From Leucothrix mucor DSM 2157 (GTDB lineage: Bacteria > Pseudomonadota > Gammaproteobacteria > Thiotrichales > Thiotrichaceae), in assembly GCF_000419525.1 (NCBI RefSeq), contig NZ_ATTE01000001.1, positions 3,631,501 to 3,695,500 on the forward strand: DNA of 64,000 nucleotides, given 5' to 3'. A model generated the notes under the pieces. The model saw nothing but the letters and a program-made list of their open reading frames with translations. It did not search any database and was not told where the DNA came from. This document shows, piece after piece, positions 19,923 through 40,349 of this stretch (positions are counted from its first letter, which is position 1; every line of letters starts with the position of its first letter). A program made the position numbers and the translations under genes.

Positions 19923-21686
19923 TTACTTAGAAGACATCATCTGTGGGATTTTGAATACCCAAACCGAACCACCTTGGTTCAGATGACTAACACGTTTTGC
20001 CACTTCACCACCCCAAAGCGGTACAGCACCACCCCAGCCTGAAGCTACTGCCACATATTGCTCACCGTCTTGATCCCAAGTAATCGGCTGACCCACCACA
20101 CCAGAACCGGTTTGGAATTTCCAAAGCTCTTTACCTGTCTTCGCATCAAAGGCTTTTAGGTAACCTTCAGGTGTACCGGTAAAGACTAGGTCTCCGGCAG
20201 TTGCCATCACACCTGCCCAAAGTGGCGCATCGTTCTTATATTCCCAAACTGTCTTACCAGTATTTGGGTCGATCGCTTTAAGAGAACCGATGTAGTCATC
20301 AAAGATTGGCTTAATGGTAAATCCAGAACCCAGATACGCCGCACCTTCTTTATAGCTAACCGGCTCGTTCCAGATATCCATGCCCCATTCGTTGGAAGGC
20401 ACATAAAACAGACCGGTGTCAGGGCTGTGCGCCATTGGCATCCAGTTCTTACCACCTAAGAATGAAGGCACGGAGAATACAACCTTACCTTTACCGCCAT
20501 CTGCTGCGTCGGCAGGGTTACCCGGGCGATTCTCTTCGTTATAGATTGGGCGACCGGTTTTAGGATCAATTCCTTTAGCCCAGTTGATTTGCTTAACAAA
20601 TGGAGAGGCTGAAACAAATCCACCATCTTTACGATCGAGTACGTAGAAGAAGCCGTTTCTATCCGCCGTGGCATAACGCTTGTTACCGTCTTTATCCACA
20701 AACGGTACGACTTCGTTTACACCATCAAAATCCCAACCTTCACGAGGGGTAGTTTGATAGTGCCATTTGATTTCGCCATTTTCAGGGTCGATACCAATGC
20801 GTGACGCCGCATATAAGTTATCACCAGAACCATCCGTTTTATCGCCACCACGTAACCAAGAGTTCCATGGCGCAGGGTTTCCGGCACCAAACACCAGCAT
20901 ATTGGTATCAGAGTCGTAAGAGCCACCTAGCCACGTCGCACCACCACCGTTTTTCCATAAATCACCCGGCCACGTTGCATTGAGCTTACCGGTCATGGTG
21001 CTCTCTTTGCCATTGAGCGTACCCATATGGCCTTCGATAACCGGACGTGTCCAAACCAGTTCGCCAGTCTCAGCCTTACGAGCCTGCACTTCTCCGACCA
21101 CACCAAACTCACCACCCGAGTTACCGGTAATAACCAAGCCATTCACAACCAGTGGCGCGGCGGTGTAGGAGTAACCCGCCTTATAGTTTGCAATTTTATC
21201 TTTCCAGACAACATCACCGGTTTTGCGGTTGAGTCCCACAAGGCGTGCATCCAGCGTACCGAAAATAACGATGTCGCCGTAGATTGCCGCACCACGGTTG
21301 ATTACGTCACAGCAAGGCAAAATCCCTTCCGGTAAACGTGCGTCGTACTGCCAAATTTCCTCACCCGTTTTTACATCAATCGCATATAAGCGAGAGTAAG
21401 AACCAGTGATATACATAATGCCATCATAGACTAACGGCTGTGCTTCATTGCCTCGCTGCTTCTCTCCACCCATTGAGAAAGACCACGCAGGCACAAGGTA
21501 CTTAACATTGTCTTTATTGATACTTTTCAGGGGGCTAAAGCGTTGCAGGTGACGCCCCATGCCGTTGGTGACGACCTGCGAGGTAATAGTACCGTCGTTG
21601 GCGATATCCTCTTCAGTCACGCCAGCCGCATAAGCCGATGTGGAAGCCAGCATGCACACTGCCGAGGCTAATAATAATCGTTTCAT
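19923..21686 (-). CDS. PQQ-dependent alcohol dehydrogenase, lanthanide type (XoxF/ExaF-like)
   Basis: A 587-residue periplasmic quinoprotein with signal peptide 1-20 (AYA). It has the eight-bladed PQQ propeller with tryptophan-docking repeats. Active-site residues: vicinal Cys125-Cys126, metal ligands Glu193 (GGEFGV) and Asn270 (GAGNPAPW), catalytic Asp319 in GWDFDG, and Asp321 two residues later. That extra Asp is the known marker of lanthanide-dependent enzymes; calcium enzymes have Ala or Ser there. It should oxidise methanol, ethanol or other primary alcohols and pass electrons to a cytochrome c, likely the PedF-like protein at 36.5 kb. An AGAGAGGAG site precedes the start. The split between XoxF and ExaF/PedH types cannot be settled by eye. 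Confidence 0.93.
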
Positions 21687-21983: not shown

Positions 21984-22940
21984 ATGATCAGAAGCCTGTT
22001 TATTGCGGCAGCGTTGTTATTGAGTTCGGCAAGCTGGAGCGCTGAGCTACCCACCATCCGCCTCGGTGCACTGGCCTACGGCACAGTAAACTGGGAACTC
22101 GATACCATTAAGAACAACAAGTTGGATGAGAAATACGGCTTTAAGCTAGACGTGATTCCCATGGGTGGCGGCAGTGCCTCTGACATTGCCTTTCTGGGCG
22201 GCGAGATCGATGTGATGGTTTCCGACTTTATCTGGGCTGCTGCGCAACGTGCCGAAGGCCGCGACCTCAAATTTATCCCCTACTCCACCGCCGTCGGTGG
22301 GATTATGGTGAAAGCCGACAGTGGCATTAATTCATTAAAAGACCTTGCCGGAAAGCGCATTGGCGTCGCTGGTGGACCGCTTGATAAATCCTGGCTAATC
22401 CTGCAAGCCTATGCCAAACAGGAAGGACTGCTTGATCTCAAAGCCGATACTAAACAAGAGTACGGCGCACCACCGATTATGTTTAAAGCGGCCATGAGTG
22501 GCGATATTGATGGCGTAATCAATTTCTGGCACTTCCAGGCTAAAGCTAAAGCCGCCGGGCTCAAAGAAATTATCTCGGTACAGGATGCTGCTAAATCCTT
22601 AGGACTTGATCCTTCCGTGCCACTGCTGGGTTACATCGTAAACGGCAAAATGGATACCAAATTATCCCAAGGTTTATTCGCGGCTTCGCGAGATGCCAAA
22701 GCAATGCTGAGCAATGACGATGCTGCCTTTGATGCCGTCAGAACGCGCATGAAGCCTAAAAATGAGGCGGAATTTGAAGCCCTGAAAGCAGGCTTTAGAG
22801 CCGGCATTCCCACTGGCACCACAGTCGATGAAGCCGCCGTTGATAACACCCTGCAAATGATGGCAAAACTCGGTGGCCCCGATTTAGTTGGTAAAGCGAC
22901 CACGCTCCCCAAAGACCTTTTTATCTCACTAGACAACTAA
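21984..22940 (+). CDS. ABC transporter substrate-binding protein (NitT/TauT type)
   Basis: A 318-residue periplasmic binding protein with signal peptide 1-19 (WSA). The fold pattern follows the NMT1/SsuA/TauA family: LGALAYGTVNWELDTIK, the SASDIAFLGGEIDVMVSDF hinge region and LAGKRIGVAGGPLDKSW. First gene of a tightly packed nine-gene operon reading away from the PQQ dehydrogenase across a 297-base gap. An AAGGAGAG ribosome site precedes it. Relatives bind sulfonates, nitrate, thiamine precursors or aromatic acids; linkage to the dehydrogenase suggests the ligand is related to alcohol oxidation or its cofactors. Confidence 0.85.
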   Translation: MIRSLFIAAALLLSSASWSAELPTIRLGALAYGTVNWELDTIKNNKLDEKYGFKLDVIPMGGGSASDIAFLGGEIDVMVSDFIWAAAQRAEGRDLKFIPYSTAVGGIMVKADSGINSLKDLAGKRIGVAGGPLDKSWLILQAYAKQEGLLDLKADTKQEYGAPPIMFKAAMSGDIDGVINFWHFQAKAKAAGLKEIISVQDAAKSLGLDPSVPLLGYIVNGKMDTKLSQGLFAASRDAKAMLSNDDAAFDAVRTRMKPKNEAEFEALKAGFRAGIPTGTTVDEAAVDNTLQMMAKLGGPDLVGKATTLPKDLFISLDN

Positions 22941-22944
22941 CTCA

Positions 22945-23697
22945 ATGCGCAACGAGCATTTAATTCGTCTGGTTTCACTGGGGATACTCCTCCTCTCCTG
23001 GAGTATCCTTTCAGTGGTGATGGCTGACCCTCAGGTGCTGCCATCGCCCCTGATTGTCGGGCAAAAGATGGCTGAGCTTTGGGCCACTGGCGACCTTCAA
23101 CTGCACCTGATTGACACCACTGTCCGGATCATCTGGGCATTTTCGCTTGCCATGATACTCGGTGGCATACTCGGCTATTTGATGGGCCGCTACCCGCTAT
23201 TAAATGCCTGGCTTGATCCGTGGCTGATCGTGTTTCTAAACCTTCCTGCGCTGGTGTTAATCGTTCTGTGCTATCTGTGGATTGGCCTAAATGAAACCGC
23301 CGCCATCCTCGCCGTTACGCTGAATAAACTGCCGCTGGTAATGACGCTAATCCGCGAAGGCGCACGCAATGCCTCATCCGAGCTTCGCGATTTAGCCCAA
23401 GTCTTCAAGCTCTCGCCACTGGATAAATTCCGACACATTATTCTGCCAGAGCTACTGCCCCATGTCGTTGCAGCGGCGCGTACCGGTTTATCGGTGATTT
23501 GGAAGATTGTGCTGGTGGTTGAGTTCCTTGGTCGCAGTACCGGCATTGGCCGACAAATCCACACCCAATTCTCACTGTTTAATATTACAGGGGTATTGGC
23601 TTATGCACTGAGCTTTGTGGTGTTCATTCTGCTCATAGAGTTCCTGATTATGCAGCCCTTAGAACGGTATGCCACACGCTGGAGGCAACATGATTGA
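22945..23697 (+). CDS. ABC transporter permease (SsuC/TauC type)
   Basis: A 250-residue inner-membrane permease with six helices. The EAA loop that contacts the ATPase is visible as LRDLAQVFKLSPLDKFRHIILPELLP (positions about 145-170), in the BPD_transp_1 arrangement of NitT/TauT/SsuC importers. It starts five bases after the binding-protein stop and its own stop overlaps the ATPase start by eight bases. Works with the proteins on either side. Confidence 0.9.
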   Translation: MRNEHLIRLVSLGILLLSWSILSVVMADPQVLPSPLIVGQKMAELWATGDLQLHLIDTTVRIIWAFSLAMILGGILGYLMGRYPLLNAWLDPWLIVFLNLPALVLIVLCYLWIGLNETAAILAVTLNKLPLVMTLIREGARNASSELRDLAQVFKLSPLDKFRHIILPELLPHVVAAARTGLSVIWKIVLVVEFLGRSTGIGRQIHTQFSLFNITGVLAYALSFVVFILLIEFLIMQPLERYATRWRQHD

Positions 23698-24286
23698 TGT
23701 TGATGTATCGGGTAAAACCTTTGGTAAGCAGCAGATATTAGGTAGCTGCAAGCTGAGCTTAAACGCAGGATCACGGGTCAGCCTACTCGGGCCTTCAGGC
23801 ATTGGTAAGTCGACCTTATTGCGCATTATCGCAGGGCTGGATACCCGCTATGAAGGCAAAGTGAATCGCCCTAAAAAGATCGCTTATATGTTTCAGGGGC
23901 CAAACTTATTAGAGTGGCGAAACTGCTACCAGAACCTGATGATTTTTCATCCCGATGCCACTCAGTCAGATGCTGAGGAAGCGTTGAAACAAGTGGGGCT
24001 GGGGGATAAAGGCATGCACTTTCCGAGGCAACTTTCGCTGGGCCAACAGCGCCGACTCGCACTGGCCAGAACCTTTCTCAGCAAGGCGGATCTTGTGCTG
24101 TTGGATGAGCCATTCACCTCTCTCGACCCGCAGCTGAAAGCCGATATGCTCAGCCTAACCCGCAACCTGCTGGACCAATCAGATGCGACACTTATCCATG
24201 TAACCCACGATGCGACGGAGGCGAACACGCTTGGAGCAAAGGCTATTCAAATGCAAGGCACGCCGGCAACCCTGCAATCACCCTAA
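23690..24286 (+). CDS. ABC transporter ATP-binding protein
   Basis: A 198-residue ATPase, short for the family (usually 240-260). Walker A is LLGPSGIGKSTLL, the signature is LSLGQQRRLALART (a Gly-to-Leu change in LSGGQ form) and Walker B is ADLVLLDEPFTSLD, followed by the His switch LIHVTHD. The start at 23690 has a GGAGG site six bases upstream. It energises the permease encoded just before it. The C-terminus is truncated relative to SsuB but all catalytic motifs are kept. Confidence 0.9.
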   Translation: MIDVDVSGKTFGKQQILGSCKLSLNAGSRVSLLGPSGIGKSTLLRIIAGLDTRYEGKVNRPKKIAYMFQGPNLLEWRNCYQNLMIFHPDATQSDAEEALKQVGLGDKGMHFPRQLSLGQQRRLALARTFLSKADLVLLDEPFTSLDPQLKADMLSLTRNLLDQSDATLIHVTHDATEANTLGAKAIQMQGTPATLQSP

Positions 24287-24293
24287 GTGGCCT

Positions 24294-24965
24294 GTGGCGC
24301 TGGGCTTGTTAATCGCTTGCCTGCTGCTGGCGCCTGCCACTTGGGCGCATGGCGTTGCCGGTGGTGATGCCGACTATTTGCAGCAAGTCAGCGGTGTGCA
24401 AATCATTCCCTTTATCTATCTGGGCGCTAAACACATGGTCACCGGCTATGACCATTTACTGTTCCTATTAGGTGTGATCTTTTTTCTCTACCGCATGAAG
24501 GACGTTGCACTGTATGTCACGTTGTTTGCGGTCGGCCATAGCATCACTTTGCTGTATGGCGTGCTTAGCGGCCTGCATGTGAATGCCTATTGGGTGGATG
24601 CCATTATCGGCTTATCGATTGTGTATAAAGCGCTGGATAACTTAGGCGCCTACAAACGCTGGTTTGATTGGCAGCCGGATACTCGTTGGGCAGTGCTGAT
24701 TTTTGGCTTGGTGCATGGCTTTGGCTTGGCCAGTAAATTGCAGGATTTCGCCCTTGGCGAAGATGGCTTAGTGATGAATATTCTGGCCTTTAATCTCGGC
24801 GTTGAATTTGGCCAACTACTGGCACTGGCCGTTATTTTAATCGTCATGAATCTATGGCGACGCTCCTCTCATTTTCTCCAACAGGCGTATACCGCCAATG
24901 TTGTGTTGATGACATTGGGATTCATTTTGACCGGCTACCAGCTAACGGGCTATTGGCTCACCTAA
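24294..24965 (+). CDS. HupE/UreJ-family membrane protein
   Basis: A protein of about 223 residues with a signal-like N-terminus ending in ATWAHG and six or so membrane helices. LGAKHMVTGYDHLLFLLGVIFFL is the diagnostic HupE/UreJ_2 segment (quoted at its length limit below 20 for each half), with His, Asp and His residues placed in helices; VGHSITL and LVHGFGLA are further conserved His motifs. The family is thought to import nickel or other divalent metals, or to support metalloenzymes. GTG 24294 is the likely start because it gives a clean signal peptide; an in-frame extension overlaps the ATPase gene. Here the metal need would be that of the PQQ dehydrogenase, which is inference. Confidence 0.8.
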   Translation: MALGLLIACLLLAPATWAHGVAGGDADYLQQVSGVQIIPFIYLGAKHMVTGYDHLLFLLGVIFFLYRMKDVALYVTLFAVGHSITLLYGVLSGLHVNAYWVDAIIGLSIVYKALDNLGAYKRWFDWQPDTRWAVLIFGLVHGFGLASKLQDFALGEDGLVMNILAFNLGVEFGQLLALAVILIVMNLWRRSSHFLQQAYTANVVLMTLGFILTGYQLTGYWLT

Positions 24966-24977
24966 AAGGGGAACGCT

Positions 24978-25652
24978 ATGCGAGATATCTCTGATATGAA
25001 TAGACAGGCATTGCCCTCTGGTAAGCAACTATTGCTATCCATGCTTATTGCGCTGGTGGTGGCTGCCGTCGTGTTGATAACGGCTGTTTTGCCGGCTGAA
25101 TATGGCATTGACCCTAGCGGTTTGGGTAAGCGAATCGGCCTCATACAACTGTACCAAGCTGATAACAGCATCAACAAAGCCACCGCCCCAACAGCTCAGA
25201 ATAGCGCCGAGTCGGGACAAGTTTTGGGTGACTCAATAAACAAGTCATCCGGCCAAGCTTTAGACGAATCACTAAGCAAGACAACAGACGAAGTGGTGGA
25301 TAAGGTGTTACAAAAGCACCCTGCAAAATGGCTCTCCGATAACATCAAACTCACTCTGCTCCCCAAGCAAGGCATGGAAGTTAAAGCCCACATAGAGCAA
25401 GGCAATAAAATGCTATTCCACTGGGAAGTTAGCGAGGGCACCGTGAGTTTTGATATGCATGGCAATGTCATTAACGCCGCCGAGAATGACTTCACCAGCT
25501 ACTGGCTAAGCAAGGGTGAAACCCAATCTGCCGGAACCTTTACCGCGCCCTTCTCAGGCTTGCATGGCTGGTATTGGGAGAATGAAACCGACCTACCCAT
25601 CACCATTAAGCTGACAACAGAAGGCTATTATCAGGGGTTGGTGACACATTGA
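24978..25652 (+). CDS. Single-helix transmembrane anchor protein
   Basis: A 224-residue protein with one N-terminal membrane helix (about 17-41), a Ser/Gln/Lys-rich linker (about 55-110) and a C-terminal beta-rich periplasmic domain (about 118-224) containing FHWEVSEGTVSFDMHG and GLHGWYWENETD, a pattern that recalls the GOLD/p24-type sandwich. I do not recognise an experimentally characterised member. Its position between the HupE/UreJ gene and the ExbB-like channel suggests it links the membrane motor to periplasmic partners. The stop is overlapped by the next gene's TTG start. Confidence 0.75.
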   Translation: MRDISDMNRQALPSGKQLLLSMLIALVVAAVVLITAVLPAEYGIDPSGLGKRIGLIQLYQADNSINKATAPTAQNSAESGQVLGDSINKSSGQALDESLSKTTDEVVDKVLQKHPAKWLSDNIKLTLLPKQGMEVKAHIEQGNKMLFHWEVSEGTVSFDMHGNVINAAENDFTSYWLSKGETQSAGTFTAPFSGLHGWYWENETDLPITIKLTTEGYYQGLVTH

Positions 25653-26377
25653 AGAAACAGCAAACCAACAGCAAAAGTGCCAACACCTTAGCCGCCCCTC
25701 ACACGCTAATCAGCTGGCTATGGCTGGCCGGACTATTGTTATTTATGGTGATGGTCACTTGGGATATTGGCCTGCTGCCTGCGGTACTTTCTGCTGACCA
25801 AACTCGTATTAGTCTGGTGTTACTTCTCCTCACCGCGCTGACTAGCCTGCACTGTGCCTACCGCAGTTACCAGCTATCCCGGCTGGAATCAGAACTACTA
25901 TATTGGCAACGCGACTTCATTAGCGATAATGGCAATCAGCAGAAATCAAGCAAGACCATCCTCAGTATTTATCTGCCGCTAATGATAAGCGATGGCACAC
26001 AAAAACAGCCCGACAACCTATCCCTCAATGGCGAGTTGCTAGCTGAACATTTTCACTATCAACATGCTTTTGGTTGGTTTACCGCCGGAGCCATGATCAA
26101 GCTCGGATTACTCGGAACCGTGATTGGTTTTATCATGATGCTAACCTCCATTGGTGGGTTGGATTCATTGGATATCGAGCAAGTGCAACGGCTAATGCAG
26201 CAGATGACCCAAGGCATGATGGTGGCACTGAATACCACCCTACTAGGCTTGGTCGGTAGCATGATATTGGGCATTCAATATTTGTTGCTTGATCACTGTG
26301 CGGATCGCTTGCTAGTGCGCACCCTAACGTGGGTGCAGCAAACAGCACAAGAACCTAGCTTGGAGAGCCGTAGCTAA
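25649..26377 (+). CDS. MotA/TolQ/ExbB-family proton channel subunit
   Basis: A 242-residue protein with three or four membrane helices. The C-terminal part has the family core: KLGLLGTVIGFIMML and MTQGMMVALNTTLLGLVGS, where the Thr residues line the proton path. A cytoplasmic segment of about 90 residues separates the first two helices from the core, as in ExbB. It begins at TTG 25649 inside the preceding gene's stop (TTGA), an uncommon start that enforces coupled translation. With the following ExbD-like protein it should form a proton-driven motor in the inner membrane. Confidence 0.85.
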   Translation: MKKQQTNSKSANTLAAPHTLISWLWLAGLLLFMVMVTWDIGLLPAVLSADQTRISLVLLLLTALTSLHCAYRSYQLSRLESELLYWQRDFISDNGNQQKSSKTILSIYLPLMISDGTQKQPDNLSLNGELLAEHFHYQHAFGWFTAGAMIKLGLLGTVIGFIMMLTSIGGLDSLDIEQVQRLMQQMTQGMMVALNTTLLGLVGSMILGIQYLLLDHCADRLLVRTLTWVQQTAQEPSLESRS

Positions 26378-26991
26378 TGGCTATGTTCCGCTCACGCCAG
26401 CGCATGAGTGACTCCGGTAGCGACCCGTTTACCGATTTGCTATTTAACGCCCTACTGACCTTTACCTTTCTATTCCTAATCTCCTTACTGCTAATCAACC
26501 CACCAGCAAAAAGCGGCATCATTAACCCAAAGGCGGAGTTTCTAATCACTGTCAGCTGGGAAGACGGCAATGCCAACGATATTGATACCTGGGTACAGGG
26601 GCCGCAAAACACGCGAGTCTGGTTCAAGCAAACACAAAATGGCCTGATGCATTTGGATAGGGATGACCGTGGCCTCACCAATGACACCCAGCAAGTAGAT
26701 GGGCAGGAAATTGTGAACCCGCTAAACCAGGAGGTGGTGACGATTCGTGGCCGCCCTCCCGGCGAATTTATCGTCAATGTTCACTACTACAAAAGCACGG
26801 ATCAACTGGAAGTCCCTGTTACGATTTATGTGGCCGAAGTAAACCCCACTCTCAAGGTATTGTACTACGCCACGCTCAGCCTAAAACAGGAAGGCGAAGA
26901 GAAAACAGCGGTGCGCTTTACGCTGAATGCTCAAGGCAAGGTCGAAAACATCAATACCCTACAAACCTCACTGGTTGGTGATCGCAAATGA
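26377..26991 (+). CDS. ExbD/TolR-like subunit with acidic periplasmic domain
   Basis: A 204-residue protein. Residues about 15-45 (SDPFTDLLFNALLTFTFLF) have the ExbD/TolR/MotB arrangement: a Pro, then an Asp at the head of a single membrane helix, the expected proton-carrying residue. The periplasmic part is not the usual ExbD domain; it has a DIDTWVQGP motif and HLDRDDRGL, resembling the DUF2135/YfaP-type beta domain with clustered acidic residues that could hold a metal ion. It begins one base inside the ExbB-like gene's stop. I infer it couples proton flow to a periplasmic or outer-membrane partner. Confidence 0.7.
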   Translation: MAMFRSRQRMSDSGSDPFTDLLFNALLTFTFLFLISLLLINPPAKSGIINPKAEFLITVSWEDGNANDIDTWVQGPQNTRVWFKQTQNGLMHLDRDDRGLTNDTQQVDGQEIVNPLNQEVVTIRGRPPGEFIVNVHYYKSTDQLEVPVTIYVAEVNPTLKVLYYATLSLKQEGEEKTAVRFTLNAQGKVENINTLQTSLVGDRK

Positions 26992-27497
26992 ATGAATCTA
27001 TCCTGCTACTTGTTGCTGTTAATGTCGTGGTGTTGGCCCTGTTAGCGCTGGTGCTGATTTACAGTCACCTGCATTGGGTATTACGCCTGCTGCTGGTACT
27101 CATGGTCAGTGGCAGTTACTGGATAGCCTATCAGGGCTGGGATCGTGCTCAAGGTTGGCCGAGTAGCAATCCAGTGCCGGAAAAATTCCTACTGCACGGC
27201 GCTGTCATTGAAGAGCCGGATAAAGAAAACGGCGTGACTGGCACGATACACCTGTGGCTAACTGACCTCTCCACCCATCAGCCCGCAGAGCAGCCACGCG
27301 CGCATGTACTGCCCTACTCCAAACAATTGCATAGCAAAGCTCAGGAAGCCTTGCGGAATATGCGTAACGGTGAACTACAGCTCGGCACGCTTCAATTAGA
27401 AGCTGGTAATAAACAAGCTGCGGGCGGTTATGCAGGGGAAAATCCACAAGTCATCGAATTCTCCGACTTACCCAAGCAAGCCCTACCGGAGAAATAA
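26988..27497 (+). CDS. Hypothetical inner-membrane protein
   Basis: A 169-residue protein with two closely spaced hydrophobic helices (about 4-24 and 29-48) and a C-terminal soluble domain of about 115 residues, probably periplasmic, containing GVTGTIHLWLTDLSTHQP and a Gln/Ala-rich segment. No family recognised. Its ATG overlaps the preceding stop by four bases and the lipoprotein gene follows after two bases, so it belongs to the nine-gene operon. Confidence 0.7.
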   Translation: MNESILLLVAVNVVVLALLALVLIYSHLHWVLRLLLVLMVSGSYWIAYQGWDRAQGWPSSNPVPEKFLLHGAVIEEPDKENGVTGTIHLWLTDLSTHQPAEQPRAHVLPYSKQLHSKAQEALRNMRNGELQLGTLQLEAGNKQAAGGYAGENPQVIEFSDLPKQALPEK

Positions 27498-27499
27498 CC

Positions 27500-28204
27500 A
27501 TGTGGCGGAGCATACTCATCATGCTAATCGCCTCGGTGGGGTTGATTGGTTGTAGCGACAAACCGAAATCAAACGATTACTTCCCATTGCAGGAAGGCTT
27601 GAGCTGGCAATACCGTTATCAACTCACCACCTCAGCCAAGCAGGAACAAGGGCTTTATACAGTAACGAATCTGGGAACGACTAAAGTTGGAAACGAAACG
27701 CTAACCATACGCCGTACCAGTACCGACCGGGACTATTATCTGCTGCAAAAGCCGGATGGTATTTATCGCTATGCTAGCCGAACACTATTTGAAACGCATC
27801 CGGTAGTTGATGAACCGGCGCGTCTGGTGCTGCCGACGCCTTACCTTGGCAGTTCCGAGCGGACTTGGTCATCCACAACTACCAGTTATGTCATCCATCG
27901 AACCGGCCCTTCGACCATCGCCAGTGCCAACGCGACGAAAGATTTTGTGATGAATTACCGCATTGCTTCGCAGGATGAAACGGTAGTTGTTCCGGCGGGG
28001 AAATTTGAACATTGCTTGCTGGTAGAAGGTGACGCCACCTTGACCATTTTTGCTGATCCGATGACGGGTTATACGGATGTGCCGGTTAAAACGCGGGAGT
28101 GGTATGCCCCTGGTGTTGGGATGGTTAAATTAGAGCGGACTGAACCGCTGGAAACGAGCGTTTACAAGGGCGGGCGCTATGTTTTTGAATTGATTTCTAA
28201 CTAA
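27500..28204 (+). CDS. Lipoprotein, unknown function
   Basis: A 234-residue protein with a lipobox (LIGC, Cys18) after a short hydrophobic signal, so it is a membrane-anchored periplasmic lipoprotein; the residue after Cys is Ser, which favours the outer membrane. The body begins DYFPLQEGLSWQYRY, a pattern seen in many lipoproteins with a beta-barrel-like lipocalin/DUF-type fold, and holds VVVPAGKFEHCLLVEG. Last gene of the nine-gene operon. It might be the outer-membrane partner of the ExbB/ExbD-like motor, which is inference. Confidence 0.75.
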   Translation: MWRSILIMLIASVGLIGCSDKPKSNDYFPLQEGLSWQYRYQLTTSAKQEQGLYTVTNLGTTKVGNETLTIRRTSTDRDYYLLQKPDGIYRYASRTLFETHPVVDEPARLVLPTPYLGSSERTWSSTTTSYVIHRTGPSTIASANATKDFVMNYRIASQDETVVVPAGKFEHCLLVEGDATLTIFADPMTGYTDVPVKTREWYAPGVGMVKLERTEPLETSVYKGGRYVFELISN

Positions 28205-28412: not shown

Positions 28413-28619
28413 ATGTTTTGTAGTACGTAAAATATAAAAAGCATTATTATTTTTGGACGATTAAAAATTTAATGCCTATCTTAAAAACTGCGACTAGAGA
28501 AACCACAGTAATATGTTTTTTAATTATTGTGATCGTTTAAAAAGTAAAACGTTACATATCAACTGCTCATTTCAAGTGAGCGGTTAAATCTAGCAAGACT
28601 AGCTTAAATGAATAAGGAA

Positions 28620-28642
28620 AAGCTGTGGCTCAGCCGCAGCTT
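28620..28642 (+). terminator. Hairpin, possible terminator
   Basis: Stem AAGCTGTGGC / GCCGCAGCTT (10 bp with one G-T pair), 3-base loop, followed by TATCCTTTC. The stem is strong but the T tract is interrupted. Confidence 0.45.
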
Positions 28643-28754
28643 TATCCTTTCTAGCTTTAGATCTCTTCGTGACACCCTTTGACTATTCTGTTGATTAGCT
28701 TATAATCTGCACTACTCTTCCCAATAATCAGACGCTCAAAATACTAGTTAATAT

Positions 28755-32065: not shown

Positions 32066-32848
32066 TCACCTAAACTTCCTCTTAAGCACCCCCCGCTTAG
32101 ACTGATACCCCCAAAGCGCCAGCCCAAAAAACAGCCCCAAGCAGCCAACCACAACCACCAAATTAACCCATTCCAATTTCCCATACAGCGTAAACCGAAT
32201 CAGCTCCACCCCATGGCTAAACGGATTAAACTCCACCACTCTAGCCAACCAAGGCGCGTTTTCCTGAATTCGCCACAGCGGATACAACGCGGTCGAGGCA
32301 AAAAACATCGGGAAGATCACAAAATTCATCACTCCCGCAAAGTTCTGCAATTTAGTAATCAGCGTTGAAATCGCCAAGCCCAGCGCCCCCAACATCAGAG
32401 CAGTTAGAAAAATCGCCGGAGTCGCCAGTAGATAGCCCATCGGCTCGACCCGTATTCCTACAAAGTAGGCGATCAGCAGAAACGTCCACACCTGCAGCAA
32501 GCCCACTGACGCACTGGCAATCAACTTTGAAAACAGCATCCACTGGCGCGAGATCGGCGCAACCAACAACAGCTTCATCGAGCCCATTTCACGATCATAA
32601 ACAATACTCAGCGCGGACTGCATGCCATTAAACAGCACGATAATCCCGCACAGCCCAGGCACGATATAGGTTTCGTAGCGGATGTAGGTGTCATAAGGCG
32701 GATAGATCGCCAGCCCTAGTGCTGCACGAAAGCCAGCCCCGAAGATCAGCAGCCACACCAAAGGACGCACCAACGCCGCAACAAAGCGCTCACGCTGATG
32801 TAAAAACCGCAGTAATTCCCGCCAGATAATCGCTCGCATCGCACTCAT
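32066..32848 (-). CDS. ABC-2 type permease of PQQ alcohol system (PedC-like)
   Basis: A 260-residue inner-membrane protein with six helices in the ABC-2 exporter arrangement: an N-terminal amphipathic segment (IIWRELLRFLHQRERF), the VPGLCGIIVLFNGMQSAL and MGSMKLLLVAPISRQ core and PMFFASTALYPLW. It is the permease that accompanies the PQQ-dependent alcohol dehydrogenase ABC system. The start overlaps the ATPase stop by four bases. What the transporter moves is not known; proposals for the Ped system range from substrate tolerance to cofactor or metal handling. Confidence 0.85.
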   Translation of the reverse strand: MSAMRAIIWRELLRFLHQRERFVAALVRPLVWLLIFGAGFRAALGLAIYPPYDTYIRYETYIVPGLCGIIVLFNGMQSALSIVYDREMGSMKLLLVAPISRQWMLFSKLIASASVGLLQVWTFLLIAYFVGIRVEPMGYLLATPAIFLTALMLGALGLAISTLITKLQNFAGVMNFVIFPMFFASTALYPLWRIQENAPWLARVVEFNPFSHGVELIRFTLYGKLEWVNLVVVVGCLGLFFGLALWGYQSKRGVLKRKFR

Positions 32849-33558
32849 AATTGTAACAACTCTTCTTTAGCCACAAATTTGGATTTGATTCCCTGCGCTC
32901 CGCCCAGCTCGGCAAAGGTGCCCTGCTCTTTTATCTGGCCTTTTTCCAATAGAATCACTTGGTCGTGTTCCTCGATTTCATCCAGTAGATGCGTAATCCA
33001 AACCACGTTGACGCCCTGCTTGGCTAGTGCGTGAACTTGATTAGAAATCTCTTGGCGGATGGTCGGGTCAAGCCCGCTGGTTGGCTCATCCAGAATGAGG
33101 ATTTCCGGATTTGGTAACAGCGCTCGCACGATTTCCAAGCGCCTGCGATGCCCACCATTCAGGCTAGCGGCTTTATCAGCACGTTGCGCCCAAAGTCCAA
33201 ACTCTTTTAGCAATGCTTCCGAGCGAGCCTGATAGTGTTTAAGCCCGTACAACCCGGCAAAGTAACGAATGTTCTGCTGGACTGACAGTTCAAGGTCTAA
33301 GGTGTTTTCTTGAAACACAAAGCCCATATTGGCAGTGTGGCGCTGCATACGATCATGCGCATCCACACCGCCAATCCTTACCCTACCGCGATCTGGCGTC
33401 AGTATTCCAGAGATCAAGTTAAACGTGGTTGACTTACCCGCGCCATTTGCACCTAACAATGCGGTAAAGCCTTCCCCTTTTATGCTCAGTGAAAAGTCTT
33501 TCAGCACCACTTTTTTCCCATAGGAAAAATCAACATTCTCTAGAATAATTTCTGCCAC
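32845..33558 (-). CDS. ABC ATPase of PQQ alcohol system (PedA/PedB-like)
   Basis: A 237-residue ATPase. Walker A is LLGANGAGKSTTFN, the signature is LNGGHRRRLEIVRAL (G-H in place of G-Q), Walker B ILILDEPTSGLDP and the switch VVWITHLLDE. The G-H-R-R-R variant is a feature I associate with the PQQ-alcohol ABC ATPase group. It starts at GTG 33558, one base inside the stop of the small periplasmic protein gene. It drives the ABC-2 permease encoded after it. Confidence 0.88.
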   Translation of the reverse strand: MAEIILENVDFSYGKKVVLKDFSLSIKGEGFTALLGANGAGKSTTFNLISGILTPDRGRVRIGGVDAHDRMQRHTANMGFVFQENTLDLELSVQQNIRYFAGLYGLKHYQARSEALLKEFGLWAQRADKAASLNGGHRRRLEIVRALLPNPEILILDEPTSGLDPTIRQEISNQVHALAKQGVNVVWITHLLDEIEEHDQVILLEKGQIKEQGTFAELGGAQGIKSKFVAKEELLQL

Positions 33559-33998
33559 TATTTAATCTCGATATCCAGTTTTTGGGTTTTTCCGGTACTA
33601 CCGGGAATACTGATGGCGTACTTGCCGGGCTTGATGGCGACAAAGCCAATTTCCATGGTGCCGGCATCATCAAACTCGACCGACTCAATGCCATAAGGGC
33701 GAATCTCCAGCCCCTCGATGACGATCTCATCAATCCATATTGCCCGTGAGAAGGAGGCAAAGTCTAGTCCGATCTCGCCCGAGCCATCCGCCGTAATTTC
33801 CACTTCATAATAAGTCCCCGACTTCAGCTCCCAAGGGCCACCCAACGGCTCGCCAACCGATAAGGTCACCTCAGGTAAATCGACTTTATTTGATCCGGAT
33901 AACAAGCCCGCCATGCCCAACGGTTTGTTATCGTCATCATCGGCAATTGCCACGCCGGTGAATGCTAAACACGCTGCTAACAACCATGCACTTTTCAT
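33558..33998 (-). CDS. Small periplasmic protein of the PQQ alcohol cluster
   Basis: A 146-residue protein with signal peptide 1-19 (AIA) and an acidic start to the mature chain (DDDDNKPLG). The rest is predicted beta-rich, with VTLSVGEPLGGPWELKSGTYYEVEI and a C-terminal FVAIKPGKYAISIPGSTGK, reminiscent of cupredoxin-like sandwiches but with no clear copper ligands. No catalytic motif seen. It sits between the ABC genes and the beta-propeller gene in one operon, so it likely serves the alcohol oxidation system. Function unknown. Confidence 0.7.
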   Translation of the reverse strand: MKSAWLLAACLAFTGVAIADDDDNKPLGMAGLLSGSNKVDLPEVTLSVGEPLGGPWELKSGTYYEVEITADGSGEIGLDFASFSRAIWIDEIVIEGLEIRPYGIESVEFDDAGTMEIGFVAIKPGKYAISIPGSTGKTQKLDIEIK

Positions 33999-34041
33999 TT
34001 TTTCCTCTCCTGTTTAAAAATCGATGCGATCTGTTATAGGG

Positions 34042-35016
34042 TCAATTACTCGTAGGTCGCGCTGCGATCCCCCAAGGGAAGCGCCCAACTTTGATCGCTT
34101 TAATGGCTTCCAACTTGTCTAAATCAATCACACTCACATCACCCGAGACTCCATTGGTGGAGAACAGGTATTTGTAATCGGGTGAAAACGCCATGTGCCA
34201 TACCCGCTTGCCAACCAGTATGTATTTCACGACTTCATAGCTGGTGGTATCGACAACGGCAAGGTGGTTGGCAGGCCCCAAAGCAACAAAGGCAAGGCTG
34301 TTATCTTTATTCAGCTCAACGCCAACCGGTTGGATTTTATCCCGATGCACACCGGGGATTTCGAAGCTGATTTTGGCCAGCTCGCTTTGGCCATCGGTTT
34401 TAAATACCGTGACAGTACCGCCGATTTCAGAGCTCACCCACAGGCGTTTGCCATCTTCGGTAAACTCCGCATGTCGGGGGCGCGCATCAACCAGCGAATT
34501 GGCGAAAATCTTATGGGTTTCCGTATCAATCCAATGCGCCATATTGGTGGTTTCAGAGGTGGTAATCGAAACCTTGCCATCAGGGCTAACGGCCATGCCT
34601 TCCGGCTCGACACCCACATTGATTTGCGTCACCACGCGACGAGTTTCAGTATCGACTACCGTAGTAATCGCGTCATCTTCATTGGCGATATAAAGCAGGC
34701 GACCATTGGGATGTAAAGCGAATTGCTCTGGGTCTTCCCCCGATGGCAAGTCATAGAGTATTTCTCCCGATGCCACATCCATGACCTGCACTGCATCAGA
34801 GTCCGATGCGCAGATATACAGCGTATTGTAGTCCTTGGAAAAAACAATCCCGCGCGGGCGGTCACCGACTTTGTACTCGCGTACCTTCTCCATCGTATCC
34901 ACATCAATCACGGATACCGTGTCCGACTTTTCATTGGATACCCAAATCTCATCTGCCACCGCAGTGCCAGCCAACATGGATAAACATGTGAATGTAAAAA
35001 GACATCCCCTCTTCAT
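34042..35016 (-). CDS. PQQ-dependent catabolism-associated beta-propeller protein
   Basis: A 324-residue periplasmic protein with a signal peptide (ending AVA) followed by seven YVTN-type beta-propeller repeats; recurring blocks such as SVIDVDTMEKV, TVVDTETRRVV, WIDTETHKI and VVDTTSYEVV mark the blades. The sequence fits the beta-propeller family that accompanies PQQ-dependent alcohol dehydrogenases. ATG 35016 has a GGAG site and gives a complete signal peptide; a longer reading frame overlaps the upstream gene and was not used. It probably binds a partner protein in the alcohol-oxidising chain. Confidence 0.88.
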   Translation of the reverse strand: MKRGCLFTFTCLSMLAGTAVADEIWVSNEKSDTVSVIDVDTMEKVREYKVGDRPRGIVFSKDYNTLYICASDSDAVQVMDVASGEILYDLPSGEDPEQFALHPNGRLLYIANEDDAITTVVDTETRRVVTQINVGVEPEGMAVSPDGKVSITTSETTNMAHWIDTETHKIFANSLVDARPRHAEFTEDGKRLWVSSEIGGTVTVFKTDGQSELAKISFEIPGVHRDKIQPVGVELNKDNSLAFVALGPANHLAVVDTTSYEVVKYILVGKRVWHMAFSPDYKYLFSTNGVSGDVSVIDLDKLEAIKAIKVGRFPWGIAARPTSN

Positions 35017-35020
35017 AATC

Positions 35021-36199
35021 TCACTCCTTAAATGCGTTACAGTCTGATTCGCCTTTGTCGTATCCCAATCCATCCAACTCGTTACGTGAATGTAAAAAAC
35101 CGTCCAGTGGTGCCATCGCCACCAAGGCACTCTGGTGCGCTAAACCAATGGGCTGGCGTAACTGGCCATTCCAGTCACGAAAAGACAGTGGACGTCCTTT
35201 AAACCCAGCCAGCTCAGCGTCATTCAGTAAATAGGTTCTCTGCTCTGATAGCGGGGCAAATTTGGTTTTGAGATTTACTTCATCAATCGCCCGCAGTGCA
35301 ATCCAAGCGGCGTAGTCTTCGCTTTGCATGGCGCGGTCGGCCAGCGATTTAAAGCGGCTTTGCAACTGAGCAGAGCCCCATTGTTCAAACACCTCAGACC
35401 AGCCCATTGAGCGTAGCCCGTCGCCACCAAAGATGGGTCTTGGCTTCCAGGTGTTGTAGCGAATGTAACGGGCAAAATCATTCCACTCATCCGCCACAAA
35501 CAAGACATCGTAGTCACCAAATTTCTGCGTGAGTAAGGAGACTTCGGAAGCCGCATGACGGCGTAGATCGCCATCGAGTAACCACTTCGAATCTTGCTGA
35601 AACTCCAGCTGATATTTCTTGGCCGAGCGGCGCAGTGCTTGGGCAAATAACGCATCCTCTTCGCTATTGCCTTCCAGCAAATGCAGCGTGTTCCACTTCT
35701 TTTGAATGAGGAATTGCATAAAAGCATCGGCGCGCATGGCATAGCTTGGCAGCGTGTGTAGCAGATTGGCACGACACGCTTCATTGCGCAGCGAGACATC
35801 ATAAGCACGTACATTAAAGAATAGCTTTTGCTCGCTCCCCGCCTCATCAATCACTGCCAATTGTTGTTTGGCATTCATATCCAGCAGTACGTAGTCCGCA
35901 TCGCTGTTTTTGATTGCGGCTTTAACCGATGCCAGCCCCTCTTCGCTATCCGCCTCATCAAATTCCTGAATATCCAGTTGGAATGTGTAGCCCAAAAAGC
36001 TGCCGGTTGTGTTGTTGTCCTTCATGCCTAACTCCGCGCCTTTTAATCCAAGGTCATCAGGAATCGGGTCAAGGTTTGACAGGGTTGGGCGCTCTGCCTG
36101 CTGTATTTTCAGATACAACACATCAACCGATCTTGGCTCCTCCGCCAGTAGCGGATTGAGCAAACAAACAAAAAGCACGACGGTAGTAAGCCACTTCAT
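35021..36199 (-). CDS. Periplasmic ABC binding-protein-like protein of PQQ alcohol system
   Basis: A 392-residue exported protein (signal peptide about 1-19) with the type I periplasmic-binding-protein fold: SVDVLYLKI at the start, DADYVLLDMNA, the NLLHTLPSYAMRADAF segment and WNTLHLLEGNS. This matches the binding-protein-like member of the PQQ alcohol ABC system, related to leucine-binding proteins. ATG 36199 has AAAGG seven bases upstream; GTG 36205 is an alternative. First gene of a five-gene operon running to 32066, divergent from the cytochrome gene. It is odd that an importer-type binding protein is paired with an ABC-2 exporter-type permease. Confidence 0.85.
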   Translation of the reverse strand: MKWLTTVVLFVCLLNPLLAEEPRSVDVLYLKIQQAERPTLSNLDPIPDDLGLKGAELGMKDNNTTGSFLGYTFQLDIQEFDEADSEEGLASVKAAIKNSDADYVLLDMNAKQQLAVIDEAGSEQKLFFNVRAYDVSLRNEACRANLLHTLPSYAMRADAFMQFLIQKKWNTLHLLEGNSEEDALFAQALRRSAKKYQLEFQQDSKWLLDGDLRRHAASEVSLLTQKFGDYDVLFVADEWNDFARYIRYNTWKPRPIFGGDGLRSMGWSEVFEQWGSAQLQSRFKSLADRAMQSEDYAAWIALRAIDEVNLKTKFAPLSEQRTYLLNDAELAGFKGRPLSFRDWNGQLRQPIGLAHQSALVAMAPLDGFLHSRNELDGLGYDKGESDCNAFKE

Positions 36200-36479
36200 A
36201 AACACGCCTTTAAATGATTGATTAACGACCTCGATAATCTCAGTGAACTCGGCCCGCGACTAAACCAGCAGTCCTTATCAATAACCTCAGAATCCAATGC
36301 CGCGCTCTGGCCCTTAGCAAAGCCAAATCTTGGGGTATATTACAGTCCGTTGTCGATCAACTTAGGATGTGGCCCTAGTGCTTAAGCGGTTTCGACGATA
36401 CAGGTTAAACCGCGAGCGAATTGCTTTTGCGTCCTGAAAAACACTTAGATTTGTTGTAAAAAATTGGAGGAGAAACCCA

Positions 36480-38219: not shown

Positions 38220-40349
38220 ATGAAAATACGTCACACGCTACAGGTTTGTGCGCTCTTTTTTATTGGCCTATTACTGGCCACTACCCTCTCCGCAGAACCG
38301 GTCACCGAAGAGCGCATTCGCGCTGAAGTTATTGCCCCGTACAGTTTGGGCGAGAAAACAGAAACCCAAGGCGTTTGGGAGCTTTTAAATGGCGGTGGCG
38401 CACGTGGCGGCTATGTAATTGAAAGCGAGTGGATTAAACCGCTCCCCGGCTTCGCTGGCGCACCCATTAATCTGATTATTCTCATCGACCTTGATGGCAT
38501 CATTATTGATGTAAAACTCCTCAACCATAACGAACCCATTTTTGTATCCGGCCTTGGTGAAGCGCCGTTTCGGGCCTTTATCGAGCAATACCGTGGTCAC
38601 TCGATTAATAGCGCGATTACTGTCGGCTCAGGCTATGGCAAACAAAGCTCCAGCGGCTCACTGATCTATTTTGATGGCGTGACCAAAGCCACTGCCTCGG
38701 TACGCATTGCGCATGAAAGCATTTTGTCTTCGGCTCGGGAAGTGGCCAAAAGCATGCTCAATGGCTTCTCAATGGTTCAGGAGAAAGTCTCGCTAAAAGG
38801 CGATGAGGGTAAAGAATTCACGTGGGATGAATTGGTCGCGCAGGGGCTGGCCAAACACGTCACCGCCACTCACGGCGAAGTTCGCGCCCTGTTCTCAGAC
38901 TCTCAGTGGCGCTCAGATGACCCGTTTCCCGACGCGGCGGATGATGATTTATTTGTCGATCTCTGGATTGTGGATGTCACTCATCCTCATGTCGCGCGCT
39001 CAGTCATGGGCAAGCGCATGTTGCGGGATTGGGAGAGCTTTAACCGAATTGCACCCGACGATGAAACCATCCTGCTCATTGAGCAAGGGGTTCACGGCCT
39101 TATCGATGATGAGTTTGTACGCAATACCGCACCACCGCTGATTACCGCCAACCAAGATAAATTCCCGCTCTCCATTCGCGATGCTGACTTACTGATTGAC
39201 CTGAAAGAAGGTGTACCCGATGACGGTACGGCGATCGTGGTTAGACTGGACCGGCGACAAGGCTTTAGCCCGGTTAGAGCTTGGGATTTGGGATTAATCG
39301 CTACTCGCCAGCGCGGCATTCTAAAGCCTGAAATTGGTGAAGTGAAACTCAGCTGGAGCTATCAGGCGGACAAACAGTTTTTTAATATCGAAAAGCCAGT
39401 GCAACCACCCACGCCATTTGAAGCCGCCGTTTTCAGCCGCATGACCGACCTAATGATACTGGCAGGCCTGCTCACATTGATTTGCTTGGTTGTATTGTTT
39501 AACCGCAAGTTTGTACACATGAAATCGTGGCCTTATCAAAGAGCGGCCTTGCTGATCGCGGTACTCGGATTTATTGGCTGGTGGGGACAAGGGCAGCTTT
39601 CCATCGTCACGCCGCTGGCAGCCTTGGTTGCTGCGGTGAGCGGTAAGCCATTGGATTTCTTATTGTACGATCCGTTTTCACTATTAATCTGGCTCGTGGT
39701 GATTGTTAGCTTTTTTATTGTTGGCAGAGCATTGTTTTGCGGTTGGCTTTGCCCGTTTGGTGCCTTGCAGGAACTCGTTGCCAAGGTCGCCAAAGTGCTG
39801 TCTATTCCTCAGCTTAAAATTAGTGACAAGCTAGATAGCCGCCTAAAGTCAATCAAATACATTGCGCTACTGGGGCTGGTTGCAGTGGCGTTCTTTATAC
39901 CGCGCCAGCTCGATACGGCGGTAGAGGTTGAACCGTTCAAGACCGCGATCTCGGTCTTCTTTGTTCGTGAATGGTATTTCGCGGCTTATGCACTGCTGTG
40001 TTTATTGGTCTCGCTGGTCGTGTTTAAAGGCTACTGCCGCTACCTCTGCCCACTTGGCGCGTTTATGGCCATTGGTGGTTTCTTGCGGCTTAGTAAATGG
40101 ATTAAACGGCGGGAAGACTGCGGCTCACCCTGCCAGCTGTGCAAGGTGCGCTGTGATTATCAGGCCATTAAAAAAACTGGCGAGATTAGTTATACGGAGT
40201 GTTTTGGCTGTCTGGACTGTGTGGATATCTATGAGGATAAAACGCAATGCGTTCCACTGATTCTGCAAGAGAAAGGCAAGCTCAAGGGCTCAATACACGC
40301 TCGTAATGCCGCACAACCGATACACTTTAAACCACAGACACAAGCGTAG
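38220..40349 (+). CDS. NosR/NirI-like FMN-binding iron-sulfur membrane protein
   Basis: A 709-residue protein. Order: N-terminal signal/helix (1-25), periplasmic FMN-binding domain (about 70-195) with the DGVTKATASV stretch where a flavin may be attached to Thr, a linker, then about six membrane helices (from about 410) with CGWLCPFGALQEL and YCRYLCPLGAFMA, and a C-terminal two-cluster ferredoxin region holding CGSPCQLCKVRC and CFGCLDC. This is the NosR/NirI architecture, which moves electrons from the quinone pool to the periplasm. No nitrous oxide or nitrite reductase is nearby, so here it probably serves the alcohol-oxidising system. Confidence 0.88.
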   Translation: MKIRHTLQVCALFFIGLLLATTLSAEPVTEERIRAEVIAPYSLGEKTETQGVWELLNGGGARGGYVIESEWIKPLPGFAGAPINLIILIDLDGIIIDVKLLNHNEPIFVSGLGEAPFRAFIEQYRGHSINSAITVGSGYGKQSSSGSLIYFDGVTKATASVRIAHESILSSAREVAKSMLNGFSMVQEKVSLKGDEGKEFTWDELVAQGLAKHVTATHGEVRALFSDSQWRSDDPFPDAADDDLFVDLWIVDVTHPHVARSVMGKRMLRDWESFNRIAPDDETILLIEQGVHGLIDDEFVRNTAPPLITANQDKFPLSIRDADLLIDLKEGVPDDGTAIVVRLDRRQGFSPVRAWDLGLIATRQRGILKPEIGEVKLSWSYQADKQFFNIEKPVQPPTPFEAAVFSRMTDLMILAGLLTLICLVVLFNRKFVHMKSWPYQRAALLIAVLGFIGWWGQGQLSIVTPLAALVAAVSGKPLDFLLYDPFSLLIWLVVIVSFFIVGRALFCGWLCPFGALQELVAKVAKVLSIPQLKISDKLDSRLKSIKYIALLGLVAVAFFIPRQLDTAVEVEPFKTAISVFFVREWYFAAYALLCLLVSLVVFKGYCRYLCPLGAFMAIGGFLRLSKWIKRREDCGSPCQLCKVRCDYQAIKKTGEISYTECFGCLDCVDIYEDKTQCVPLILQEKGKLKGSIHARNAAQPIHFKPQTQA

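What the first reader, a model, noticed from the sequence alone, without database searches (positions are those of the whole stretch)
21984..28204. Nine-gene membrane operon divergent from a lanthanide-type alcohol dehydrogenase
Seen: nine genes on one strand with overlaps or gaps of up to 15 bases: ABC binding protein, permease, short ATPase, HupE/UreJ protein, single-helix anchor, ExbB-like channel, ExbD-like subunit, two-helix protein, lipoprotein. Known: HupE/UreJ proteins are linked to metal uptake, ExbB/ExbD to proton-driven work across the envelope. Inference: a combined ABC plus proton-motor system dedicated to importing or sensing the metal, cofactor or alcohol used by the divergent PQQ enzyme. 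I know of no described system with this set.
Basis: partly seen in the sequence, partly recalled or inferred. Interest (0 to 1): 0.85.

Follow-up and report, generated by a model that had tools for sequence, protein, structure and literature searches.

The report
Partner genes of a lanthanide-type alcohol oxidizer
The nine genes are not one machine but a stack of three gene sets, two of which travel with alcohol-oxidizing enzymes of the rare-earth-metal type, one being an apparently undescribed proton-driven envelope device that may help supply or load the metal.

Summary
The nine genes are real, co-directional and tightly packed, but they are a composite of three modules.
(1) A-B-C, an NMT1/SsuABC-type ABC importer. 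Its binding protein occurs in 19 of 369 class genomes; all 19 have a PQQ alcohol dehydrogenase hit. It lies with ped/quinoprotein genes in 13 of 17 further loci.
(2) D-E, a HupE/UreJ-anchor pair found on its own elsewhere and absent from the three closest sister operons: probably an insertion.
(3) F-G-H-I: ExbB-family channel, ExbD-like protein, two-helix protein, lipoprotein. G's periplasmic domain has a TerD-like fold (Z 9.2-11.5; no sequence homology found). G (200 bits or more) is in 26 of 369 genomes; 24 have a PQQ dehydrogenase over cut-off, against 36 of the other 343 (p=3e-19). Weaker G relatives show no link (2 of 14). Most linked enzymes are D-x-D (lanthanide) type.
Homologs of the known lanthanide transporter PedA1A2BC lie 4 kb downstream. 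I propose that FGHI is a proton-driven periplasmic metal-handling or maturation device: association well supported, mechanism inferred.

The parts
21984..22940 (+). A: NMT1/SsuA-type periplasmic binding protein of an ABC importer
   Evidence: PF09084 1.4e-11; at E<=1e-25 in 19 of 369 class genomes, all with a PQQ dehydrogenase hit at E<=1e-100
22945..23697 (+). B: ABC importer permease (SsuC/TauC-like)
   Evidence: PF00528 1.1e-21
23669..24286 (+). C: short ABC ATPase (SsuB-like)
   Evidence: PF00005 1.6e-27
24210..24965 (+). D: HupE/UreJ_2 membrane protein (possible start GTG 24294); one half of an inserted pair
   Evidence: PF13795 3.4e-58; absent between C and F in L052, L053, L054
24978..25652 (+). 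E: single-helix anchor, partner of D (in one ORF with HupE in some genomes)
   Evidence: match in 14 of 144 relatives, some partial; a HupE match lies beside it in all but three (L317, L325, L327) of the 18 partly overlapping loci read
25649..26377 (+). F: MotA/TolQ/ExbB-family proton channel
   Evidence: PF01618 in 18 of 18 family members; invariant GLLGT and TT
26377..26991 (+). G: ExbD-like protein, one TM helix with invariant Asp20 plus periplasmic beta domain of TerD-like fold
   Evidence: alignment; model pLDDT 83; fold match Z 9.2-11.5
26988..27497 (+). H: two TM helices plus small, possibly OB-like domain, conserved C-terminus
   Evidence: alignment; model pLDDT 76; weak OB-fold rows, Z 6.2 or less
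27500..28204 (+). I: lipoprotein, DUF3108-like, invariant lipobox Cys18
   Evidence: PF21347 in 19 of 19 members; alignment
19923..21686 (-). divergent PQQ alcohol dehydrogenase, D-x-D (lanthanide) type, the only one over cut-off in the genome
32066..36205 (-). PedC, PedB, PedA2 (beta-propeller) and PedA1 homologs = relatives of the lanthanide transporter PedA1A2BC
   Evidence: TIGR03861, 03866, 03863 over cut-off; TIGR03864 best hit but under its cut-off
28619..28643 (+). terminator-like hairpin after the operon
   Evidence: pattern scan; 11 sites found, 7.6 expected

Best explanation
The operon stacks three independently distributed modules beside a lanthanide-type PQQ alcohol dehydrogenase. 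A-B-C is an accessory ABC importer of the ped lanthanide cluster. F-G-H-I is a proton-motive-force device of the ExbB/ExbD kind: F and the helix of G form the proton-driven core (Asp20 as the proton-carrying residue), H is its membrane partner and I a lipoprotein, probably in the outer membrane. Proton flow would move the TerD-like periplasmic domain of G, which presents an invariant acidic cluster (D68, D70, R95, D96, D97, D103), to deliver or load Ln3+ (or Ca2+) into the periplasmic PQQ enzyme or an associated carrier. D-E is a separate HupE-anchor pair inserted into this operon. Shown: gene content, modularity, co-occurrence, family membership of F, invariant residues, fold match of G. Inferred: proton drive, metal binding by G, action on the dehydrogenase, outer-membrane site of I.
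For: Co-occurrence in an evenly drawn class sample: G (200 bits or more) 24 of 26 with the enzyme over cut-off against 36 of 343 others, p=3e-19; within the window's own family 8 of 8 against 11 of 55, p=2e-5; named genomes 67 of 75 over cut-off. Weaker G matches give 2 of 14, so it is not a property of every relative. The binding protein A: 19 of 19 with a hit; 13 of 17 loci with ped/quinoprotein genes. D-x-D enzyme: 55 of 60 best hits of named G+ genomes fetched and typed. G in 22 of 42 lanthanide-type genomes against 3 of 19 others, p=0.01; A 17 of 42 against 1 of 19, p=0.006. F is over the PF01618 cut-off and 18 of 18 family members match that family. Invariant D16-P17-x-x-D20 in 20 of 20 G proteins. 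TerD-like fold; a TerD protein binds Ca2+ (passage in PMC8123226). One branch of the family has a vWA/FHA-like protein after H (13 loci), and vWA proteins belong to the mxa maturation operon (recalled).
Against: About half of lanthanide-type genomes lack G (20 of 42), so it is not obligatory. HMM-HMM comparison of G with TerD finds nothing (shallow alignments) and TerD is not among the Pfam hits of G; metal binding is unproven. Foldseek alone gave no match at E<=0.001. The acidic residues are also conserved in the 43-47% paralogs, which do not track PQQ enzymes. Eight of 75 named G genomes have no PQQ dehydrogenase over cut-off, five of them no hit at E<=1e-60, four of those five being small genomes of 1.2-1.4 Mb. 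Linkage on the contig is a minority (23 of 80). G profiles also touch TonB C-terminal models, below cut-off.
Confidence: 0.45

Rival explanations
1. FGHI energizes transport across the outer membrane (a TonB-ExbB-ExbD analogue) for a lanthanide chelate or PQQ, with H or I in TonB's role.
For: F is of the ExbB family; membrane proteins plus a lipoprotein; TonB-dependent receptors are known in lanthanide uptake (passage in PMC6839425); a receptor-like ORF (named by eye) lies directly upstream of A in L103; weak, below-cut-off TonB C-terminal hits of G.
Against: No TonB family over cut-off in F-I; G's periplasmic part is a TerD-like fold; I noticed no receptor among the neighbour clusters printed (most were named by eye only).
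Confidence: 0.25
2. The correlation is indirect: FGHI and A-B-C serve some other trait of alcohol-oxidizing Gammaproteobacteria (envelope stress, aldehyde or solvent tolerance).
For: Linkage is a minority; about half of lanthanide-type genomes lack G; phylogeny was only partly controlled.
Against: Association holds within the window's family (8 of 8 against 11 of 55), A-B-C is embedded in ped operons, and weaker G relatives lack the link.
Confidence: 0.2
3. One reading: the nine proteins form one combined ABC plus proton-motor machine for importing or sensing the metal, cofactor or alcohol.
For: Overlapping genes; A-B-C and FGHI both follow the PQQ enzyme.
Against: Among the loci read, A-B-C and FGHI are contiguous only in four genomes, with D-E between them in one; A and G occur together in only 7 genomes of the class sample (19 and 26 have each).
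Confidence: 0.07
4. A ZorAB-like anti-phage motor.
For: F matches ZorA profiles weakly, best E 2.1e-4.
Against: G, H and I match no PADLOC family at E<=0.1; strong PQQ link.
Confidence: 0.02

Closest known systems
ExbB/ExbD, TolQ/TolR, MotA/MotB proton-driven inner-membrane motors
   Same: F belongs to the MotA_ExbB family; G has one N-terminal helix with an invariant Asp in a D-P-x-x-D context (likeness to ExbD recalled)
   Different: G has a TerD-like fold in the periplasm and no ExbD family match; H and I matched no TonB or Tol-Pal family over cut-off; linked to PQQ enzymes
PedA1A2BC / LutAEF lanthanide transporter
   Same: Same functional neighbourhood; its homologs lie at 32066-36205 and surround A-B-C in other genomes
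   Different: A-B-C is an NMT1/SsuABC-type importer, PedBC an ABC-2-type pair; I saw no counterpart of FGHI in the passages read
Mxa maturation genes (mxaRSACKLD) for calcium insertion in MxaFI
   Same: Accessory proteins serving metal loading of a PQQ enzyme (passage in PMC10171618); one branch of the FGH operon carries a vWA-like protein, as mxa does (recalled)
   Different: No MoxR-type ATPase among the nine; the drive would be proton flow; enzymes are mostly D-x-D type
TerD (tellurite resistance, calcium-binding)
   Same: Fold of G's periplasmic domain, Z 9.2-11.5, rmsd 3.3-3.7 over 124-135 residues
   Different: 11-19% identity, no HMM-level homology; the ExbD-like helix is not part of TerD (recalled)
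ZorAB (Zorya)
   Same: MotA/ExbB-like channel with weak ZorA profile match
   Different: No PADLOC match for G, H or I

Membership tests
MotA/TolQ/ExbB proton channel (F) | PF01618 over curated cut-off | tested here: met
   39.7 bits against 22.9 for the window protein; 18 of 18 members match the family at E<=0.01
ExbD/TolR (G) | Match to the ExbD/TolR domain family | tested here: not met
   No such family among hits of G (E<=0.1, 20 members, E<=10)
ExbD/TolR (G) | Single N-terminal TM helix with the proton-carrying Asp | tested here: met
   Helix 17-40; D20 invariant in 20 of 20; its equivalence to the ExbD Asp is recalled
TerD | PF02342 sequence match | tested here: not met
   No TerD among Pfam hits of the 20 members; hhalign probability 0.4% with shallow alignments
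TerD | TerD beta-sandwich fold | tested here: met
   3ibz Z 11.5, 2qng 10.6, 2qz7 10.3, 2kxt 9.2; other rows under 7 apart from 7jtk 10.5; not ranked high by Foldseek alone
TerD | Calcium binding | not testable with these tools
   Needs protein; no residue-level superposition was available
Lanthanide-type PQQ dehydrogenase | TIGR03075 and second Asp (D-x-D) | tested here: met
   770 bits; WDFD
Lanthanide-type PQQ dehydrogenase | Activity with Ln3+ | not testable with these tools
   No enzyme assay
PedA1A2BC transporter (window 32066-36205) | The ped family is the best NCBIfam hit of each of the four genes | tested here: met
   Three over cut-off; PedB TIGR03864 is the best hit but below its cut-off, 253.5 against 302.25 bits
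PedA1A2BC transporter (A-B-C) | PedA1 and PedC family match (TIGR03863, TIGR03861) | tested here: not met
   Neither among the 7 families of A or the 12 of B; for the ATPase C only the best 25 of 195 families were shown
TonB energizing complex | TonB protein with the ExbB/ExbD pair | tested here: not met
   No TonB family over cut-off in F-I; G has a TonB C-terminal hit of 14.3 bits, cut-off 27.1
Zorya | ZorA plus ZorB | tested here: not met
   Only weak ZorA hits for F, none for G

The most novel reading that the evidence does not exclude
FGHI is a proton-motive-force-driven metallation machine: an ExbB/ExbD-type motor whose moving periplasmic head is a TerD-like metal-binding domain that loads lanthanides into PQQ alcohol dehydrogenases, to my knowledge the first motor-driven metal insertase.
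Probability: 0.2. Interest if true: 0.92.

Novelty: new variant of a known kind. Interest (0 to 1): 0.7.

Why it matters
How lanthanides are handled in the periplasm and inserted into PQQ enzymes is, to my knowledge, an open question. This work gives two gene modules that track those enzymes across many families of Gammaproteobacteria; the full-text searches made here did not find them described in this context. FGHI can be deleted in cultured genera that carry it (Thiothrix, Neptuniibacter, Oceanospirillum, Limnobacter). If FGHI acts on the enzyme, proton-driven stators would gain a new kind of job: metal loading.

Tried and rejected
One nine-part machine: rejected on distribution. HupE as a metal importer for the enzyme: only a weak link (E in 6 of 14 genomes with PQQ dehydrogenase against 22 of 130, p=0.03). 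PQQ import because the cell cannot make PQQ: a pqqC gene is present. Zorya-like defence: rejected. TerD family membership: not met by sequence. Solved relatives by sequence: none convincing for G, H or F; for I two putative exported proteins at E 0.002 (4fvs, 3fzx), not followed. Fold of H: only weak OB-like rows, Z 6.2 or less. Foldseek alone gave no match at E<=0.001 for G; TerD came up only in the VIA-align second look. TerD genes themselves do not track PQQ dehydrogenases: 1 of 10 TerD genomes (G011) is in the dehydrogenase list. PMC7391723, PMC12997753, PMC12482762 and PMC6839425 were searched for terms only (passages seen); ExbB has no hit in any of them, HupE none in the three where it was asked.

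Limits: co-occurrence p values ignore phylogeny except for the within-family test. Lists of genome handles were typed from the tables. Only one to three of the best dehydrogenases per genome were typed for D-x-D; in the class sample G300 and G447 were not typed; of the 70 named genomes with a hit, 60 were fetched had been fetched under other handles and 2 (G214, G217) were not typed. Treating three odd D-x-D variants (G070, G296, G449) as lanthanide type gives G 23 of 45 against 2 of 16 (p=0.008) and A 17 of 45 against 1 of 16 (p=0.024). The G threshold (200 bits) was set after seeing the table. In one search, L085, L087 and L092 were left out because L068, L072 and L083 come from the same genomes; L080 was not held, so not searched. 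The search for related loci kept 80 of 279 confirmed stretches. Many neighbour genes were named by eye.
Full report
What is there. The nine ORFs lie at the stated place on one strand with gaps from -77 to +12 bases; the -77 overlap goes if D starts at GTG 24294. Pfam confirms A, B, C, D, F and I; E and H match no family over cut-off and G none at E<=0.1. The divergent gene is a PQQ alcohol dehydrogenase (770 bits, cut-off 480), the only one over cut-off in this 5.19 Mb genome, with the D-x-D motif of lanthanide enzymes (the meaning of the motif is recalled). A pqqC gene lies about 17 kb beyond the window. Homologs of the lanthanide transporter PedA1A2BC, the cytochrome PedF and a NosR-like protein follow at 32-40 kb. 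PedA1A2BC is needed for growth at low lanthanide in Pseudomonas putida (PMC6839425, passages). The nearest named relative is Leucothrix pacifica: G003, told as same genus, has a contig of the same length and the same match as L052.

The set is a composite. A pattern scan of the genome-contig collection with a G alignment confirmed 279 stretches, of which the best 80 were kept. F, G and H stay together: ORF clusters, all on the same strand, in 67, 65 and 70 of 80 loci, and I in 47 (the counts are lowered by ORF picking and contig ends). A-B-C lies in the stretch of 7 of 80 (all three genes) and D-E in 1 of 80 (L055). In the three closest operons (L052 Leucothrix pacifica, L053, L054) the order is A-B-C-F-G-H-I beside the dehydrogenase, and D-E is absent between C and F. 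E matches in 14 of 144 relatives, some matches being partial; in the 18 partly overlapping loci read, a HupE match lies beside it in all but L317, L325 and L327. So D-E is best read as an inserted pair.

FGHI follows PQQ dehydrogenases genome-wide. In a class sample drawn evenly by the tool (369 genomes), 40 had a G match; 26 of these score at least 200 bits. Of the 26, 24 have a PQQ dehydrogenase over cut-off; of the other 343, 36 do (Fisher p=3e-19). The exceptions are G070 (441.6 bits, below the cut-off) and G336 (64% complete). The 14 weaker G matches show 2 of 14, no enrichment. In the first sample of 144 relatives it is 12 of 13 against 16 of 131. Inside the window's own family it is 8 of 8 against 11 of 55, while genomes with only the 39-46% paralogs give 3 of 13. 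In the genomes of the named loci, 48 of 49 and 20 of 27 are over cut-off, one genome being in both calls: 67 of 75 distinct. Those without: G171 (weak hit only), G194, G203, G207, G211, G218 (no hit at E<=1e-60), G210 and G214 (below cut-off). Linkage on the contig is much rarer: 23 of 80 loci show a ped or quinoprotein marker. A midpoint-rooted tree of 111 G proteins puts the window in a clade of 58 (support 0.99), with paralogs at 43-48% identity in a separate clade of 16.

Which enzyme type. Of 60 best dehydrogenases fetched from named G-positive genomes, 55 are D-x-D. In the class sample, typed genomes split 42 lanthanide-type and 19 not; G is in 22 of 42 and 3 of 19 (p=0.01), A in 17 of 42 and 1 of 19 (p=0.006), G or A in 33 of 42 and 3 of 19 (p=8e-6). 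So both modules lean to the lanthanide type, but 9 of 42 lanthanide genomes have neither.

A-B-C. The binding protein A occurs in 19 of 369 genomes at E<=1e-25. All 19 are among the 63 with a dehydrogenase hit at E<=1e-100 (p=2e-16), 17 of them over cut-off. In 13 of 17 further loci it lies with ped, quinoprotein or PQQ dehydrogenase genes, often in one run such as PedA-YVTN-PedB-PedC-A-B-C (L355) or PedB-C-B-A-PedC (L353); L363, L365, L366 and L367 lack such neighbours. Its ligand is unknown.

What FGHI may do. F is a MotA/ExbB/TolQ channel (18 of 18 members match PF01618) with invariant GLLGT and TT segments. G has one helix with an invariant Asp20 and a periplasmic domain with invariant D68, D70, R95, D96, D97 and D103 in 20 of 20 proteins, the distant paralogs included. 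The model (pLDDT 83) matches TerD structures with Z 9.2 to 11.5, rmsd 3.3-3.7 over 124-135 residues; apart from 7jtk (Z 10.5), other rows are below 7. Foldseek alone did not rank TerD high, and profile comparison finds no homology, so this is fold likeness, not membership. DUF2135 matches 6 of 20 members weakly (best E 0.0013). TerD of Klebsiella binds calcium (passage in PMC8123226 citing Pan 2011). H has two helices and a small, perhaps OB-like, domain, and I is a lipoprotein with an invariant Cys. One branch of the family has a vWA/FHA-like protein after H (13 loci; profile hits below cut-off for the one tested). From this I infer a proton-driven envelope device that handles a Ca/Ln-like ion for the periplasmic enzyme. 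The association is strong; the mechanism is a proposal.

Literature. Full-text searches for HupE with ExbB, ExbD, PQQ and ABC transporter, HupE UreJ with lanthanide, TolQ ExbB proton channel with PQQ and NMT1 with lanthanide returned no paper; ExbB, ExbD, quinoprotein and lanthanide returned one, on a siderophore (PMC9301485, listing only). A 2026 paper on the ped cluster has no ExbB, MotA, TolQ or HupE in its main text (PMC12997753, passages). The library holds open-licence papers only.

Noticed in passing
13 loci among L097-L129 (e.g. L101:11304-12824): In a sister branch of the FGH operon the gene after H encodes a vWA-like domain plus an FHA-like domain; L,D-transpeptidase-like and lipoprotein-like genes often precede F, with tilS- and accA-like genes on the opposite strand (mostly named by eye).
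   Followed up: partly
L103:3298-6694: In a Glaciecola MAG a TonB-dependent-receptor-like ORF (by eye) sits directly upstream of the A binding protein, suggesting that the A-B-C substrate crosses the outer membrane by TonB.
   Followed up: no
L030:3822-4910, L320, L324: HupE and the anchor E are read in one ORF in some genomes; in L030 (same contig as L055) it lies near MerR- and cation-efflux-like genes (by eye) and also near a ped cluster.
   Followed up: partly
window 26988-27497 and family: H ends in a conserved C-terminal motif (LPDPALPEK or similar; P167 and K169 invariant in 25 proteins), perhaps a docking tail.
   Followed up: no
window 38220-40349: NosR-like membrane protein (442 bits, below the NosR cut-off of 1000) right after PedF and a binding protein, where some other genomes have SoxYZ/metallohydrolase genes; possibly a different electron outlet.
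   Followed up: no
G003:C35, G001, G005 and other family members (L045): Paralogous FGH set at about 43-47% identity, mostly in genomes without a PQQ dehydrogenase; function unknown.
   Followed up: partly
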